From Desulfurococcales archaeon (GTDB lineage Archaea; Thermoproteota; Thermoprotei_A; Sulfolobales; AG1): a stretch of DNA of 32,137 bases. The stretch spans positions 1 through 32,137 of the forward strand of contig WANO01000068.1 of the NCBI GenBank assembly GCA_015521765.1. The letters are read 5' to 3'. The notes beneath the pieces are model-generated. The model had not been told where the DNA came from and made no database searches. It saw only the letters and a program-made list of their open reading frames with translations. The first letter of the stretch is position 1. Each line of letters begins with the position of its first letter. Made by a program: the position numbers and the translations under genes. Shown piece after piece: positions 17,870 to 31,308 of this stretch.

Positions 17870-18772
17870 TTGCCCACTAACCAGGGTATAAGGTTTCAGG
17901 AGAATATGGGCGATTTCGCCGAGCTGTTGAGCAAGCTTGTGAAGGAGGAAAAGGAGTTCGCTGTGGTTATGGTTATAAGGTCCCAGGGCTCCACAGCGGC
18001 TAAGGTGGGTGCTAAAGGAATAGTGTTTCCAGACGGCAGAATTCTCGGGTGGCTAGGCGGGTGGTGTGCAGAGAACGCTATAATGACGGCAGTGATGGAC
18101 GCTATAGAGAGCGGCTCACCCAAGATTGTGAGGCTGGTTATGCAGGGGGAGGATTTAAGAAAGATTGGAGAGGACTATATAGAGGTTGGAACCCCCTGTG
18201 GAGGTGAGGTTGATATATATATAGAGCCCGTCTACCCCAAACCCCAGATAGTTATAGTTGGCGACAACGATGTGTCTAGAGCACTCTCTAAGATAGCCAA
18301 GATTGTCGGCTTCAAGGTTGTTGTGGTTGATTCACTCGCCGTTAAACAGAACTACCCCGATGCAGACCTCATACTCAGGAGCCTAAAGGATATAGCTAGT
18401 GTTAGAATGGATCGACACACATTCGCAGTGTTAACCACAATGGGCAGGGTAGGCATTGAGGAGGAGATTCTAGACACCCTCCTCAAGACCGATGTGGGGC
18501 TTATAGGGGTTGTATCCAGCGTTAGAAAAGCCAAGGAGATACTGGGCAACCTAATAAAGAAGAAGGGATACACGCCAGACCAGCTCTCAAGGATCAGAGC
18601 ACCCATAGGTGTTGATATAGGCTCGCTATCACCAGAGGAGATAGCGCTAAGCATAGTCAGCGAGCTGGTAGCGATTAGGAGGGGTGGTAGCGGAAGATTC
18701 CTTGTAGAGGTTAAGGGGGACCCCCTAAAATCCCTTATGGAGGAGATAGAGGTCCCCCGAAAAAATAAGTGA
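17870..18772 (+). CDS. XdhC/CoxI-family molybdoenzyme maturation factor
   Basis: 300 aa with the two-domain XdhC layout. The N-terminal XdhC_CoxI domain (about residues 15-115) carries RSQGSTAAKVGAKGIVFPDG, LGGWCAENAI and VGTPCGGEVDIYIEPV, the latter two each with a conserved Cys. The C-terminal Rossmann-like domain (about 125-270) starts at IVIVGDNDVSRALSKIAK and ends with RIRAPIGVDIGSLSPEEIALSIVSEL. XdhC proteins bind molybdenum cofactor, promote its sulfuration and hand it to xanthine-dehydrogenase-type enzymes. The TTG start is supported by GAGGTG 6 nt before it. No molybdoenzyme gene is adjacent, so its client lies elsewhere. The glycine loop reads GDNDV rather than the more usual GAGHV. 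Confidence 0.88.
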   Translation: MPTNQGIRFQENMGDFAELLSKLVKEEKEFAVVMVIRSQGSTAAKVGAKGIVFPDGRILGWLGGWCAENAIMTAVMDAIESGSPKIVRLVMQGEDLRKIGEDYIEVGTPCGGEVDIYIEPVYPKPQIVIVGDNDVSRALSKIAKIVGFKVVVVDSLAVKQNYPDADLILRSLKDIASVRMDRHTFAVLTTMGRVGIEEEILDTLLKTDVGLIGVVSSVRKAKEILGNLIKKKGYTPDQLSRIRAPIGVDIGSLSPEEIALSIVSELVAIRRGGSGRFLVEVKGDPLKSLMEEIEVPRKNK

Positions 18773-21757: not shown

Positions 21758-21835
21758 GGGCCCTTAGCCCAGTCAAGGAAAGGGCGTCGGCCTTCGGAGC
21801 CGGGGTCCCGGGTTCAAATCCCGGCGGGTCCGCCA
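21758..21835 (+). tRNA. tRNA-Arg (anticodon TCG), CCA encoded
   Basis: A cloverleaf folds as follows: acceptor GGGCCCT with CGGGTCC, D-stem GCCC/GGGC with loop AGTCAAGGAAA, anticodon stem TCGGC/GCCGG around loop CTTCGGA (anticodon TCG, Arg), a 4-nt variable loop GGTC, T arm CCGGG-TTCAAAT-CCCGG, discriminator G and an encoded CCA. The seventh acceptor pair is a T-C mismatch and pair 3 is G-T; the rest is sound. A TATA-like TCTTATAAGA lies about 23-32 nt before it. No intron is present. A degenerate copy of its 3' half lies 1 kb downstream. Confidence 0.85.
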
Positions 21836-23822: not shown

Positions 23823-25640
23823 TTATATGAGGTCCGTAGTGGCTCTATAGCCCGTGAGCACGCCAACGGTGTCTGCTCTATAGAGATCGGGCAACCTGCC
23901 ATAATCTTCGGTAAGGTGTTTAGGCATTAAGGCTATATCGAGGTCCCCGCTCATGATGAGGGATGCGATCTGCCTGTATGATGTGACAAGTATCCTTTTA
24001 ATTTTTGCTTCGCTAGCTATTCCTTGGAGCAGTGTGTTTAGTATTGATTCTGTGGCCTTTCTGCTGCATGTATCTTTTGGTGCGGAGGCCACGCTAATAA
24101 TGTCTCTCTCATCGAGGTCCTCCCTATATATTAGGGTGATCTCTTTCTTCACCCTATCGATCTTGTATTGATCGGGTATAGAATCGAGATCAAAGCCAAA
24201 CCTATAGCTCTCTGAAGACCCCATATAGGCTATAGAGATCTCGGAGCATAGGTAGCCCTCAAACACCGCTTTATCCAGAAGCCATCTGTATGTGGTGAAG
24301 CTATCCATATAAAGATCGAGGACACCACCACCGAAATCAAAGCGCGTATCTATAAACTCTCCACTCCTCAGCCTCCAGACCCTTGGAGGATACCTAAGAA
24401 ACCTAACGCCAACACTCTTCCCATACTCAAGGGACCCTCCCTCAAAGGATAGAGGTATAGTTATGTAGGTATCAGCGAAAGCAAGCCTACCCACCATATA
24501 GCTCTCAAACACCCAGGGAAGAACACGGAGAACACCGTCGGGACCCCTAACCAGTATGGATGGCACATGCGTAACCCTGCCCCTAGCACCCCTAGCCCTA
24601 AGCAGAAGTCTTGCTTTAAGCTCCATATCCTGGAGATGCTCCCTCCTCCCAAGCATTCTGTATAGCACATCCCTAAGGATCTGGGTCAGCGTGAAGAACG
24701 CAGATACAGGGTTTCCCGGAAGCCCTATAACGAGCTTTCCACCCACAACCCCTACCAGAAGGGGTTTGCCGGGCTTATACCTGATCCCCCTAACAATGAT
24801 CCTTCCATCCCGCTCAACAGCTCTATACACATAGTCCTCAGCACCAGCAGAGGTCCCCCCTGTAGTTATTATAGCGTCACACCTTCTAGATAGATCCAGA
24901 AGCCTAGAGGAGATGGCTTCCAGATCATCACCAACAACCCCAGCAACGTGGACATCGAAACCCATGTCGGCGAGGTATCTAGATAGCCCCCCAATATTGC
25001 TTTCATAGATCTTGCCTGGCCTATAGGGCTCGCCTATCTCCAGAAGCTCCCTTCCGGTGGCGAGGAGGCATATCCTCGGCTTCCTATACACCTTAACCCT
25101 CGACACGCCTAGGGATAATAGGGTTGAGACCAGCCTAGCATCAACCACATTGCCTTTCCCAGCTACTACCTCTCCTCTAGCTATATCTGATCCTGGATAG
25201 GCTATATGAGCCCCAGGCGGAGGGACCTCCCTAACAACAATATAGCCGTCGCCCTCCACATCAACAAGCTCTACCGGAACCACAATATCGGCGTTCCTAG
25301 GAAGCATAGCCCCTGTATCCACCTCAACGCATGTCCCCGGATCTATCTGGATGCCTGAGGCATCGTCACCTATTCTTATTCTACCCGATACCCTCAGGCG
25401 TTTTCGTATATCTGAAACAAGATCTATGTATCGCGCCGCGTAGCCGTCCATTAGGGAGATCCTGAATCTAGGAAGATCTACAGGAGAAACAATATCCTCA
25501 GCCAGAACCCTGCCGTAGGAGTTTATGGTATCGACATACTCAGTTTCTGGGGGCCCAACTATATTGAGGCTGAAGATTCTTGATAGGACTTCATCAATAT
25601 CTATGAGGCTTTCAACGGGTTTTCTGGGGGGTCTGCTCAT
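23823..25640 (-). CDS. moeA: Molybdopterin molybdenumtransferase MoeA fused to a binding-protein-like domain
   Basis: 605 aa. Residues about 1-410 are MoeA, which inserts molybdenum or tungsten into adenylylated molybdopterin. Seen: RISLMDGYAAR, TGAMLPRNADIVVPVE, the MPT-binding core ITTGGTSAGAEDYVYRAV, GIRYKPGKPLLVGVV and IGLPGNPVSAFFTL, then the beta-rich domain IV. Residues about 430-605 form a second domain (VLDLYMDSFTTYRWLLDKAV, then ISIAYMGSSESYR, and later VTSYRQIASLIMSGDLDIAL), which has the look of a periplasmic-binding-protein-like sensor fold. MoeA-PBP fusions are known in archaea, but this second half is divergent; it might sense the metal oxyanion or a cofactor. Monocistronic as far as can be seen. 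It may work with XdhC, encoded 5 kb away. Confidence 0.9.
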   Translation of the reverse strand: MSRPPRKPVESLIDIDEVLSRIFSLNIVGPPETEYVDTINSYGRVLAEDIVSPVDLPRFRISLMDGYAARYIDLVSDIRKRLRVSGRIRIGDDASGIQIDPGTCVEVDTGAMLPRNADIVVPVELVDVEGDGYIVVREVPPPGAHIAYPGSDIARGEVVAGKGNVVDARLVSTLLSLGVSRVKVYRKPRICLLATGRELLEIGEPYRPGKIYESNIGGLSRYLADMGFDVHVAGVVGDDLEAISSRLLDLSRRCDAIITTGGTSAGAEDYVYRAVERDGRIIVRGIRYKPGKPLLVGVVGGKLVIGLPGNPVSAFFTLTQILRDVLYRMLGRREHLQDMELKARLLLRARGARGRVTHVPSILVRGPDGVLRVLPWVFESYMVGRLAFADTYITIPLSFEGGSLEYGKSVGVRFLRYPPRVWRLRSGEFIDTRFDFGGGVLDLYMDSFTTYRWLLDKAVFEGYLCSEISIAYMGSSESYRFGFDLDSIPDQYKIDRVKKEITLIYREDLDERDIISVASAPKDTCSRKATESILNTLLQGIASEAKIKRILVTSYRQIASLIMSGDLDIALMPKHLTEDYGRLPDLYRADTVGVLTGYRATTDLI

Positions 25641-27022: not shown

Positions 27023-27106
27023 CTAGATATTAGTGGTATCGTGAAATATATTATAATCCTAAGGAATACTCTATAACGGTGGGTTTGGGTCTAGACCGAT
27101 TTCTAC

Positions 27107-27180
27107 GGATCAATGATGTTAGGGGCCCTCACATGAGGGTAGCCTGAAATGTGATGAGGGGCCAAAGCTCTGAGTGATTC
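27107..27180 (+). ncRNA. C/D box sRNA candidate (2'-O-methylation guide)
   Basis: In the gap between two minus-strand genes, in order: 5' stem GGATCA (27107-27112), C box ATGATGT (27113-27119, one mismatch to RTGATGA), D' box CTGA (27144-27147), 3 nt, C' box GTGATGA (27151-27157, perfect), exactly 12 nt GGGGCCAAAGCT, D box CTGA (27170-27173), and TGATTC (27175-27180), which pairs with the 5' stem over 6 bp including one G-T. Archaeal guides have this order, a 12-nt C'-D spacing, a 3-nt D'-C' gap and a total near 60-70 nt. The C-D' spacer (24 nt) is longer than usual. The guide before D' ends in AGGGTAGC. Confidence 0.6.
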
Positions 27181-29160: not shown

Positions 29161-31308
29161 ATGGATCTGGAGTGCCCGTCGAAACCTATACCTCTAGAGA
29201 AGATTGATCTTCCAGCCAAGATAAGGGAGGAGCTGAAGCTTAGAGGATACAGCACTCTAACACCTCCCCAGGCAGAGGCTGTGGCTAGAGGTGTTTTGAG
29301 CGGAAAAAGCATGGTTGTTTCCGCACCAACAGCTAGCGGCAAAACCCTTATAGCCGAGATGGCGCTTATGAGGGCCTCTATGGGTGGCGGGATAGCTATA
29401 TATACATGCCCCCTGAAGGCTCTGGCCAACGAGAAGTTTGATGAGTTCTCTGGATGGAGCAGGAGGCTAGGGCTCAAGCTAGGGATAAGCACGGGAGACT
29501 TCGATGAGCCTGGAGAGAGCTTGAGTAGGTATGATGTTTTGATAACAACCTATGAGCGTTTGGACTCTATCTTTAGGCATAGGCCATCATGGATTGAGAG
29601 GGTTTCCCTCATAGTTATCGACGAGATCCATAGTGTGGGGGACCCCGATAGGGGGCCGATCATCGAGATGATTGTGGCTAGAGCCCTCAGGCTCGGGATC
29701 CAGGTTCTGGGTTTAAGCGCCACCATAGGCAACCCGGATGAGCTGGCTGAATGGTTGAGGGGTGAGGCTGTTATCTGTGATTGGCGTCCTGTGCCCCTTA
29801 TATATGGCTACTATGATCGTAGGGGGTCGAGGTTCGTCTTTGAAGACGGTAGGGTTGAGCGTGTTGTTGGGGACCCCTACATATATAGCTCTAGAGTAGC
29901 TATAGAGAGGGATTACCAGGTTCTCATCTTCTCTCAGTCCCGGAGAAACGCCGAGTCGCTGGCTAGGAGGATTGCTGAGTCTTTGGGTCTTTATGCCCAC
30001 TCTATATCCGGGGGTTTAGCTAGGGACCTCGTATCCGATCTGGAGAGTAGCGTGTCGTCGAGGATAGAGGTTGATAATCTTAAGCCCCTAGTATCTAGGG
30101 GTGTAGCGTTCCACCATGCAGGGCTCTCTCTGGAGGCTAGAAGGATTATTGAGCGCGGCTTTAGGGAGGGCTTGCTGAAGGTTGTAGTTTCAACACCAAC
30201 CCTCGCTGCTGGAGTGAATCTCCCTGCTAGGCGTGTCTTGATCACTACTATGAGGTATTCGGATGGCTACTACGAGCCTATATCGCTGATCGAGTTTAAG
30301 CAGATGGCTGGGCGGGCTGGCAGGCCTCAGTTCGATGAGTATGGTGAGGCCATTATTGTGGATCAGACGCCCTCCAAGGCTATAGAATATATTAGGGGGT
30401 CCCCTGAGCCTGTTGATTCGATGCTCAATAGCGAGAGGAGCCTGAGGATACATGTGCTATCTATACTGGCTTCTGGATATGCAAAGACCTTCTCCGAGGT
30501 TGAGGACTTCTTCTCCGACACCTTCTACGGTTTCAAAAGATCTTTTAGGGGCTTAAGGTCTGTTCTGTCCAGGGTGATCAATGATCTGTCTAGGATGGAG
30601 ATGATAGATAGGAGGAACTCAACAATCGAGGTCACCAGGCTTGGCAGAGTGGTTAGCATGCAGTACATAGATCCTTTAACAGCCCACAGAGCCCTCACCT
30701 ATCTCAGGGGTGAGGAGAGGGTTAAGGGTGATCTATGGTATCTCCACATGATCTGCCAGACGCCAGACTTCATTAGGAGCGGGAGTAGGAGGGGTGGATT
30801 CAAGAAGCTTGAGGATGAAGCAATCGAGCTGGCGGAGGCCGGCGAGCTTCCAGAGCCTCTGGGTGATGTAGACTTCGAGCTCTGGCTTCTTGCGTATAGA
30901 AACGCTAAGGCCCTGAAGCTATGGATAGATGAGTATGATGAGGACTCTATATATGAAATCACCGGCTTGATGCCCGGTGACTTGAGGTCTATGATTGAGA
31001 CAGCAACATGGATAGCCCACGCTATCCATGTTGTTTCCTCGATCTTTAAGGACCTCAGGCACCATTCCGAGTATCTATATAAGCTATCCATAAGGCTTGA
31101 GGAGGGTGTTAGGGAAGATCTTCTTGAACTGATCAAGCTTAAGGGTATAGGGAGGGTTAGGGCTAGGGCTCTATATGATGCTGGCTACCGATCTATCGAT
31201 GATCTCAGAAGAGCCGATCCCAGAGCGATCTTGAGGCTGAGGGGCTTTAATAGGAGGGTGGTTAAGGAGCTGTTTGCCCAGCTCGGTGTTGATGTTCGTG
31301 ATCTATAG
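29161..31308 (+). CDS. Ski2-like superfamily 2 DNA helicase, Hel308/Hjm type
   Basis: 715 aa ATP-dependent 3'-5' helicase of the Hel308 group, which works at stalled replication forks and in recombination. Seen in order: Q-motif region TPPQAEA (about 35-41), motif I APTASGKT (about 55-62), CPLKALANEK, motif II VIDEIHSVGD (about 152-161), motif III LSATIGNPDELAEWL, FHHAGL, motif V TPTLAAGVNLPARRV, motif VI QMAGRAGRP, then the winged-helix and ratchet helices, and a C-terminal HhH segment (LIKLKGIGRVRARALYDAGY). Length and domain order fit Hel308 rather than Brr2 or Lhr. No strong ribosome site stands before ATG 29161; it may be translated leaderless. Confidence 0.9.
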   Translation: MDLECPSKPIPLEKIDLPAKIREELKLRGYSTLTPPQAEAVARGVLSGKSMVVSAPTASGKTLIAEMALMRASMGGGIAIYTCPLKALANEKFDEFSGWSRRLGLKLGISTGDFDEPGESLSRYDVLITTYERLDSIFRHRPSWIERVSLIVIDEIHSVGDPDRGPIIEMIVARALRLGIQVLGLSATIGNPDELAEWLRGEAVICDWRPVPLIYGYYDRRGSRFVFEDGRVERVVGDPYIYSSRVAIERDYQVLIFSQSRRNAESLARRIAESLGLYAHSISGGLARDLVSDLESSVSSRIEVDNLKPLVSRGVAFHHAGLSLEARRIIERGFREGLLKVVVSTPTLAAGVNLPARRVLITTMRYSDGYYEPISLIEFKQMAGRAGRPQFDEYGEAIIVDQTPSKAIEYIRGSPEPVDSMLNSERSLRIHVLSILASGYAKTFSEVEDFFSDTFYGFKRSFRGLRSVLSRVINDLSRMEMIDRRNSTIEVTRLGRVVSMQYIDPLTAHRALTYLRGEERVKGDLWYLHMICQTPDFIRSGSRRGGFKKLEDEAIELAEAGELPEPLGDVDFELWLLAYRNAKALKLWIDEYDEDSIYEITGLMPGDLRSMIETATWIAHAIHVVSSIFKDLRHHSEYLYKLSIRLEEGVREDLLELIKLKGIGRVRARALYDAGYRSIDDLRRADPRAILRLRGFNRRVVKELFAQLGVDVRDL

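What the first reader, a model, noticed from the sequence alone, without database searches (positions are those of the whole stretch)
27107..27180. Strong C/D box sRNA candidate with terminal stem and two guide regions
Perfect C' (GTGATGA), D' and D boxes (CTGA), a near-perfect C box (ATGATGT), a 12-nt C'-D spacer, a 3-nt D'-C' gap and a 6-bp terminal stem GGATCA/TGATTC occur together in an intergenic gap. Eight bases before D' (AGGGTAGC) complement GCUACCCU, which I recall from archaeal 23S rRNA beside the peptidyl-transferase centre (around E. coli 2436-2443). By the N+5 rule this would methylate a C in that motif. The target is recalled, not computed. The D guide (GGCCAAAGCT) has no target I can name.
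Basis: partly seen in the sequence, partly recalled or inferred. Interest (0 to 1): 0.6.

Follow-up and report, generated by a model that had tools for sequence, protein, structure and literature searches.

The report
Archaeal guide RNA for tRNA-Gln wobble
This is a real, widely conserved archaeal guide RNA that most likely directs a methyl group onto the wobble base of glutamine tRNA, and in this organism that tRNA appears to be pieced together from two separately encoded halves, with the guide pairing across the join.

Summary
In detail: a C/D box sRNA sits at 27107-27180 (+). No dinucleotide shuffle of the window reproduces the box layout (0 of 500). The C'-guide-D block recurs in 112 of 147 genomes of the order. 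It pairs perfectly with tRNA-Gln(UUG) nt 31-41, and N+5 points at U34. Orthologues in relatives that look like Sulfolobaceae score 46-61 bits against Rfam sR14. Um34 in tRNA-Gln(UUG), with a C/D guide predicted for it, is published for Sulfolobus acidocaldarius. So the activity is known; expression and methylation here are inferred.

It is mostly the 3' arm of a covarying hairpin, is not conserved outside the genus, and relatives' 23S reads GUUACCCC there. The hairpin's 5' arm (GGGGCCCTC) is instead perfectly complementary to 23S near E. coli 1980-1988 and tracks that site between two families, but lies too far from D' for N+5.

New here: in this genome tRNA-Gln(UUG) and tRNA-Gln(CUG) are split genes that share one 3' half. 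The D guide spans the trans-splice junction (37/38).

The parts
27107..27112 (+). 5' arm of terminal stem (GGATCA)
   Evidence: Pairs with 27175-27180, 6 bp with one G-U. Many homologues keep a stem with different sequence, e.g. GGCGGGT/ACCCGCC and GCGGG/CCCGC; in several f1 homologues no good stem is seen.
27113..27119 (+). Box C (ATGATGT)
   Evidence: 6 of 7 to RUGAUGA; conserved as RTGATGW in families f1 and f9.
27120..27143 (+). C-D' arm, 24 nt: TA + GGGG + hairpin CCCTC-ACAT-GAGGG + TAGC
   Evidence: Hairpin pairs covary, outer pair A-U/C-G/G-U, in f1, f9 and one f3 genome.
27122..27130 (+). 9-nt block GGGGCCCTC complementary to 23S GAGGGCCCC (E. coli 1980-1988)
   Evidence: Perfect match in 23S of same-family G002 and G003; f9 has GGGGACCTC with GAGGTCCCC; 7 of 2520 permutations do as well. 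Not in N+5 register with D'.
27144..27147 (+). Box D' (CTGA)
   Evidence: conserved in most f1 and f9 homologues.
27151..27157 (+). Box C' (GTGATGA)
   Evidence: Perfect consensus; conserved across the order.
27158..27169 (+). D guide GGGGCCAAAGCT, complement of tRNA-Gln(UUG) nt 30-41, N+5 at U34
   Evidence: GGGCCAAAGC recurs in 112 of 147 genomes; target identified as tRNA-Gln(TTG); -24.7 kcal/mol.
27170..27173 (+). Box D (CTGA)
27175..27180 (+). 3' arm of terminal stem (TGATTC)

Best explanation
It is an archaeal C/D box sRNA, the local orthologue of the sR14-type guide. The terminal stem with boxes C/D, and boxes C'/D', would form two kink-turn motifs that recruit L7Ae, Nop5 and fibrillarin. 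The 12-nt D guide pairs with the anticodon arm of tRNA-Gln(UUG) (nt 30-41), and fibrillarin 2'-O-methylates U34, the wobble base. Because this organism makes tRNA-Gln from two separately encoded halves joined at 37/38, the full duplex can form only after trans-splicing. The D' side is not a working N+5 guide. It is a hairpin whose 5' arm carries a 9-nt block complementary to 23S rRNA near E. coli 1980-1988; that block may act as an antisense or chaperone arm. Shown here: box layout, conservation, perfect complementarity to the tRNA, split-gene architecture, covarying hairpin, and presence of a fibrillarin gene. Inferred: transcription, RNP assembly, methylation, order relative to splicing, and any role of the 23S block.
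For: Box layout in 0 of 500 shuffles. Homologues from box C to box D in families f1 and f9; C'-guide-D in 112/147 genomes of the order and 164/229 of the class. The target was predicted from the guide as a Gln(UUG) anticodon loop; searching GCTTTGGCCC then returned three genes that ARAGORN independently calls tRNA-Gln(TTG). Duplex -24.7 kcal/mol with mature UUG tRNA, -21.0 with CUG (mismatch exactly at N+5), -17.4 with the 5' half alone. Sulfolobaceae-like orthologues score 46-61 bits against Rfam sR14, cut-off 38; sR14 is also the best Rfam match of the window RNA, at 28.1 bits. Published for S. [quoted passage not shown] An independent check of the N+5 logic: in four f3 genomes a paralogue whose guide differs by one base (GGGCCTAAGC) matches tRNA-Leu(UAG) at the same anticodon position. 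Fibrillarin gene present in G000 and five relatives.
Against: No expression, RNP or methylation data for this organism. The Rfam sR14 score is below the curated cut-off. The guide and its tRNA target are both invariant, so guide-target covariation cannot be tested within the orthologues. The C-D' spacer is 24 nt instead of about 12.
Confidence: 0.92

Rival explanations
1. Dual guide: the D' guide AGGGTAGC methylates a C in 23S next to the peptidyl-transferase centre (E. coli 2436-2443).
For: The complementarity is to a real conserved neighbourhood; the family's 23S has GUUACCCC at E. coli 2436-2443, giving 7 pairs with one G-U.
Against: Not present as GCUACCCU in any 23S tested (G-U variants occur only at other places and in other families). 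The 3' bases of the arm are not conserved between genera, and GAGGG is a hairpin arm. The organism's own 23S is not in the assembly.
Confidence: 0.04
2. The C-D' arm is only a structural hairpin that fills a vacated guide position; its match to 23S is a coincidence.
For: Hairpin pairs covary. Family f7 has D' hairpins of unrelated sequence at the same place. tRNA-targeting sRNAs in Pyrobaculum typically have one guide without a target (review PMC7994747). The 23S block is out of N+5 register.
Against: Three f9 homologues that lost the 3' arm keep GGGGACCTC unchanged (L093, L141, L143). The block tracks 23S between f1 and f9, and only 7 of 2520 permutations do so.
Confidence: 0.45
3. Methylation acts on the 5' tRNA half before splicing, so bridging the junction has no consequence.
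For: 8 contiguous pairs including N+5 lie in the 5' half; predicted -17.4 kcal/mol.
Against: Four of the twelve pairs, all G-C, are lost. In the pre-tRNA the anticodon-loop bases CUUU are expected to pair in the bulge-helix-bulge (read).
Confidence: 0.3
4. The locus is a silent relic of a once functional sRNA.
For: No expression data are available.
Against: Sequence identical from 27107 to 27180 in a sister genome whose flanks differ; boxes and guide intact; the target tRNA is encoded in the same genome.
Confidence: 0.03

Closest known systems
Rfam RF01145 sR14 and the S. acidocaldarius C/D guide predicted for tRNA-Gln(UUG) U34 (PMC7668247)
   Same: Same D-guide sequence and D half; relatives that bridge the two score 46-61 bits on sR14.
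   Different: C-D' arm is 24 nt with a hairpin instead of about 12 nt linear; Rfam score 28.1, below the 38-bit cut-off; box D is CTGA, not the CGGA or CAGA of the Sulfolobaceae-like set.
Wobble-base C/D guides of Pyrococcus (tRNA-Leu, tRNA-Met, tRNA-Trp position 34; reviewed in PMC7994747)
   Same: D-type guide aimed at the first anticodon base of one tRNA.
   Different: Different tRNA; here the target is trans-spliced and the guide crosses the splice junction.
Split tRNA genes of Nanoarchaeum equitans (tRNA-Glu halves sharing one 3' half; tRNA-Gln(UUG) split at 32/33) and of Desulfurococcales (Asp, Lys) (PMC3218864, PMC4033280)
   Same: Separate halves, complementary leaders, bulge-helix-bulge, one 3' half used by two isoacceptors.
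   Different: Here tRNA-Gln at 37/38 with UUG and CUG sharing the 3' half, in a Desulfurococcales-like family; not found in the papers available.

Membership tests
Archaeal C/D box sRNA | Boxes C (RUGAUGA), D' (CUGA), C' (RUGAUGA), D (CUGA) in order | tested here: met
   C 6/7, the others perfect; 0 of 500 shuffles
Archaeal C/D box sRNA | Terminal stem next to C and D for a kink-turn | tested here: met
   6 bp here; stems with different sequence in many f9 homologues, weak or absent in some f1 homologues
Archaeal C/D box sRNA | 10-12-nt guide next to D or D' complementary to rRNA or tRNA, N+5 target | tested here: met
   D guide on tRNA-Gln(UUG), 11 Watson-Crick pairs, U34 at N+5
Archaeal C/D box sRNA | About 12-nt C-D' spacer with a second guide (usual, not universal) | tested here: not met
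   24-nt hairpin arm. I treat this as a variant feature, because homologues with the same D half have both linear and hairpin arms
Archaeal C/D box sRNA | Expressed and bound by L7Ae/Nop5/fibrillarin | not testable with these tools
   Only the fibrillarin gene was checked: present, E 1.7e-103
Rfam RF01145 sR14 | Score at or above the curated cut-off of 38 bits | tested here: not met
   28.1 bits. Described as sR14-like or orthologous, not filed as an RF01145 member
Rfam RF01145 sR14 | Same D guide as clear sR14 members | tested here: met
   GGGCCAAAGC identical in L196-L198, which score 46-61 bits
Split (trans-spliced) tRNA, for the target tRNA-Gln | Halves at distant loci with complementary leaders, no intact copy | tested here: met
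   G000 C62, C34 and C26 on three contigs; same plan in G001, G002 and G004; no full-length match listed in these four. G000 is 64% complete, G002 and G004 94-96%
Split (trans-spliced) tRNA, for the target tRNA-Gln | Bulge-helix-bulge at the junction | tested here: inconclusive
   Fits when read by eye: GG^A and AA^C 3-nt bulges around CUUU/GGAG (two G-U), then 13 bp CGCCGCCACCGCC/GGCGGUGGCGGCG (sequences). The unconstrained cofold shows the leader duplex but not the full motif
Split (trans-spliced) tRNA, for the target tRNA-Gln | Transcribed halves and spliced product | not testable with these tools
   needs RNA

The most novel reading that the evidence does not exclude
The sRNA works on a trans-spliced tRNA: its D guide reads across the exon junction, so wobble methylation marks, or helps complete, the joining of two tRNA halves. 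Its hairpin arm is a switchable antisense element for 23S rRNA, linking tRNA-Gln maturation to the large subunit.
Probability: 0.15. Interest if true: 0.75.

Novelty: new variant of a known kind. Interest (0 to 1): 0.5.

Why it matters
It gives a target to a guide that is nearly invariant across an archaeal order, and corrects a plausible but unsupported 23S assignment. It pairs a C/D guide with a split tRNA gene so that the guide bridges the splice junction. That makes the order of trans-splicing and wobble methylation directly testable. The six family genomes also show stages of tRNA splitting: the CUG tRNA alone is split in one genus, and both isoacceptors share a 3' half in two others. Finally, it documents a covarying hairpin in place of a guide, with an antisense block that tracks 23S.

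Tried and rejected
D guide against 16S and 23S of relatives: no convincing site. One search read eight of the twelve 23S loci on the wrong strand because those loci are not oriented; corrected. 'Hairpin looped out' split guide (TAGGGG + TAGC): rejected because the 3' bases are not conserved. D' arm against tRNA-Gln or its pre-tRNA leaders: no convincing match by eye. Exact GCTTTGGCCC hits outside tRNAs and sRNAs lie in unrelated sequence. The unconstrained cofold of the halves formed the leader duplex but misfolded the rest, so the bulge-helix-bulge was read by hand. Literature searches for a split tRNA-Gln in Desulfurococcales found none; the 2018 study of Pyrobaculum sRNAs (Lui et al.) is not in the library, and supplements could not be opened.

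Full report
THE OBSERVATION. It lies in the 174-nt gap between an M20 peptidase gene and an amidohydrolase gene, both on the - strand. The layout occurs once in the window and never in 500 dinucleotide shuffles. No Rfam model reaches its cut-off there, but the best sub-threshold match is the Sulfolobus C/D RNA sR14, 28.1 bits, E 4.7e-06.

CONSERVATION. The sister genome has the sRNA unchanged from 27107 to 27180, while the flank just upstream differs. In families f1 and f9, blast matches cover box C to box D and stop there. The pattern C' + GGGCCAAAGC + D, two mismatches allowed, is found in 112 of 147 genomes of the order and 164 of 229 of the class, against one match of the reversed control among the 147. 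Family f11 behaves like Sulfolobaceae: its copies score 46, 60 and 61 bits on sR14, above the 38-bit cut-off. The window RNA therefore belongs to the same orthologous set, although it fails the Rfam threshold, most likely because its C-D' arm is different.

THE D GUIDE. Read by the N+5 rule, GGGGCCAAAGCT predicts a target GCUUUGGCCCC with the second U modified, which has the form of a Gln(UUG) anticodon loop. Searching the complement in nine genomes returned, besides the sRNAs and unrelated sequence, three loci that ARAGORN independently calls tRNA-Gln with anticodon TTG. Guide and mature tRNA form 11 Watson-Crick pairs (nt 31-41) plus one U-G. The predicted energy is -24.7 kcal/mol, against -21.0 for the CUG isoacceptor, whose single mismatch falls at the N+5 position. 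Neither 16S nor 23S of relatives has a comparable site. In four f3 genomes a second sRNA has one base changed in the guide (GGGCCTAAGC), and the complement finds tRNA-Leu(UAG) in all four. In S. [quoted passage not shown] The activity of the D guide is thus known from a relative; what is new is its assignment here. A fibrillarin gene is present in G000 and its five family members.

THE TARGET IS A SPLIT tRNA. No intact tRNA-Gln gene was found in the window's genome G000, nor in G001, G002 or G004. Each has a UUG 5' half, a CUG 5' half and a single 3' half; in G000 they lie at C62:915-964(-), C34:606-643(-) and C26:5325-5359(+). In G000 the 3' half carries a leader GGCGGTGGCGGCG that is the exact complement of the UUG trailer (13 bp) and pairs over 12 bp with the CUG trailer. 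The junction fits a bulge-helix-bulge with 3-nt bulges GG^A and AA^C, read by eye; the unconstrained cofold shows the leader duplex only. Joining at 37/38 gives a tRNA that differs in one base from the intact tRNA-Gln of G008. In genus g3, G005 keeps an intact UUG gene and G003 a UUG gene with a 19-nt intron that I place at 32/33, while the CUG gene is split in both. This suggests that CUG was split first and UUG later came to share its 3' half. Split tRNAs, a 3' half shared by two 5' halves (N. equitans tRNA-Glu), and a split tRNA-Gln(UUG) at 32/33 in N. equitans are known (PMC3218864; PMC4033280). I found no report of this arrangement for tRNA-Gln at 37/38 in Desulfurococcales. The D guide spans the junction: eight of its twelve positions pair with the 5' half, four with the 3' half. 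The same guide exists where the tRNA is intact, so it did not evolve for the split.

THE C-D' ARM. It is 24 nt long: TA-GGGG-CCCTC-ACAT-GAGGG-TAGC. In 26 related arms the hairpin's outer pair is A-U (17), C-G (6) or G-U (1), and inner pairs 6-8 also change on both sides, so the hairpin appears to be under selection. These counts are of sequences, not of independent events. The 5' arm, by contrast, is conserved even in three homologues that lost the 3' arm (L093, L141, L143). It is perfectly complementary to 23S at E. coli 1980-1988: GGGGACCTC with GAGGTCCCC in f9, GGGGCCCTC with GAGGGCCCC in f1, and the single f3 example also fits its family's 23S. Among 2520 permutations of the f9/f1 block pair, 7 match both families anywhere in the rRNA tested. 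Because the block lies 13 nt upstream of D' here, and 9-17 nt in others measured, it cannot direct methylation by N+5. An antisense or chaperone role, or coincidence with a structural hairpin, are about equally likely to me. In family f7 the same arm holds hairpins of unrelated sequence, which favours structure.

LIMITS. The window's genome is 64% complete and lacks both rRNAs, so rRNA claims rest on relatives. Nothing here shows transcription, RNP assembly or methylation. Guide and tRNA target are both invariant, so covariation cannot be used between them, except through the tRNA-Leu paralogue.

Noticed in passing
G000:C62:915-964(-), C34:606-643(-), C26:5325-5359(+) (L124, L126, L125): tRNA-Gln(UUG) and tRNA-Gln(CUG) are encoded as separate 5' halves with one shared 3' half and complementary leaders; same plan in G001, G002 and G004.
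   Followed up: yes
G003 (L130, L131, L132) and G005 (L045, L139, L140): Apparent intermediate state: only tRNA-Gln(CUG) is split; UUG is intact in G005 and has a 19-nt intron, placed at 32/33, in G003.
   Followed up: partly
L153, L157, L159, L161 (G060, G036, G073, G045): Paralogous sRNA with guide GGGCCTAAGC, complementary to tRNA-Leu(UAG) at the same anticodon position; the tRNA is found in all four genomes.
   Followed up: partly
L187-L194 (family f7): The same sRNA carries long G+C-rich hairpins of unrelated sequence in the C-D' arm, so this arm seems to be replaced repeatedly by hairpins.
   Followed up: partly
L196-L198 (family f11): Box D of the Sulfolobaceae-like orthologues is CGGA or CAGA instead of CTGA.
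   Followed up: no
window 27043-27059 (+): TATA-like stretch GAAATATATTATAATCC upstream of the sRNA, which could serve the sRNA, the divergent peptidase gene, or both; not tested.
   Followed up: no
window 21758-21835 (+): tRNA-Arg(TCG) gene, the only RNA gene found in the window by Rfam (gathering threshold) or ARAGORN.
   Followed up: no
window 17870-18772, 23823-25640, 29161-31308: XdhC/CoxI-family gene, MoeA-like molybdopterin gene and a DEAD helicase with an archaeal helicase domain 4 near the sRNA.
   Followed up: no
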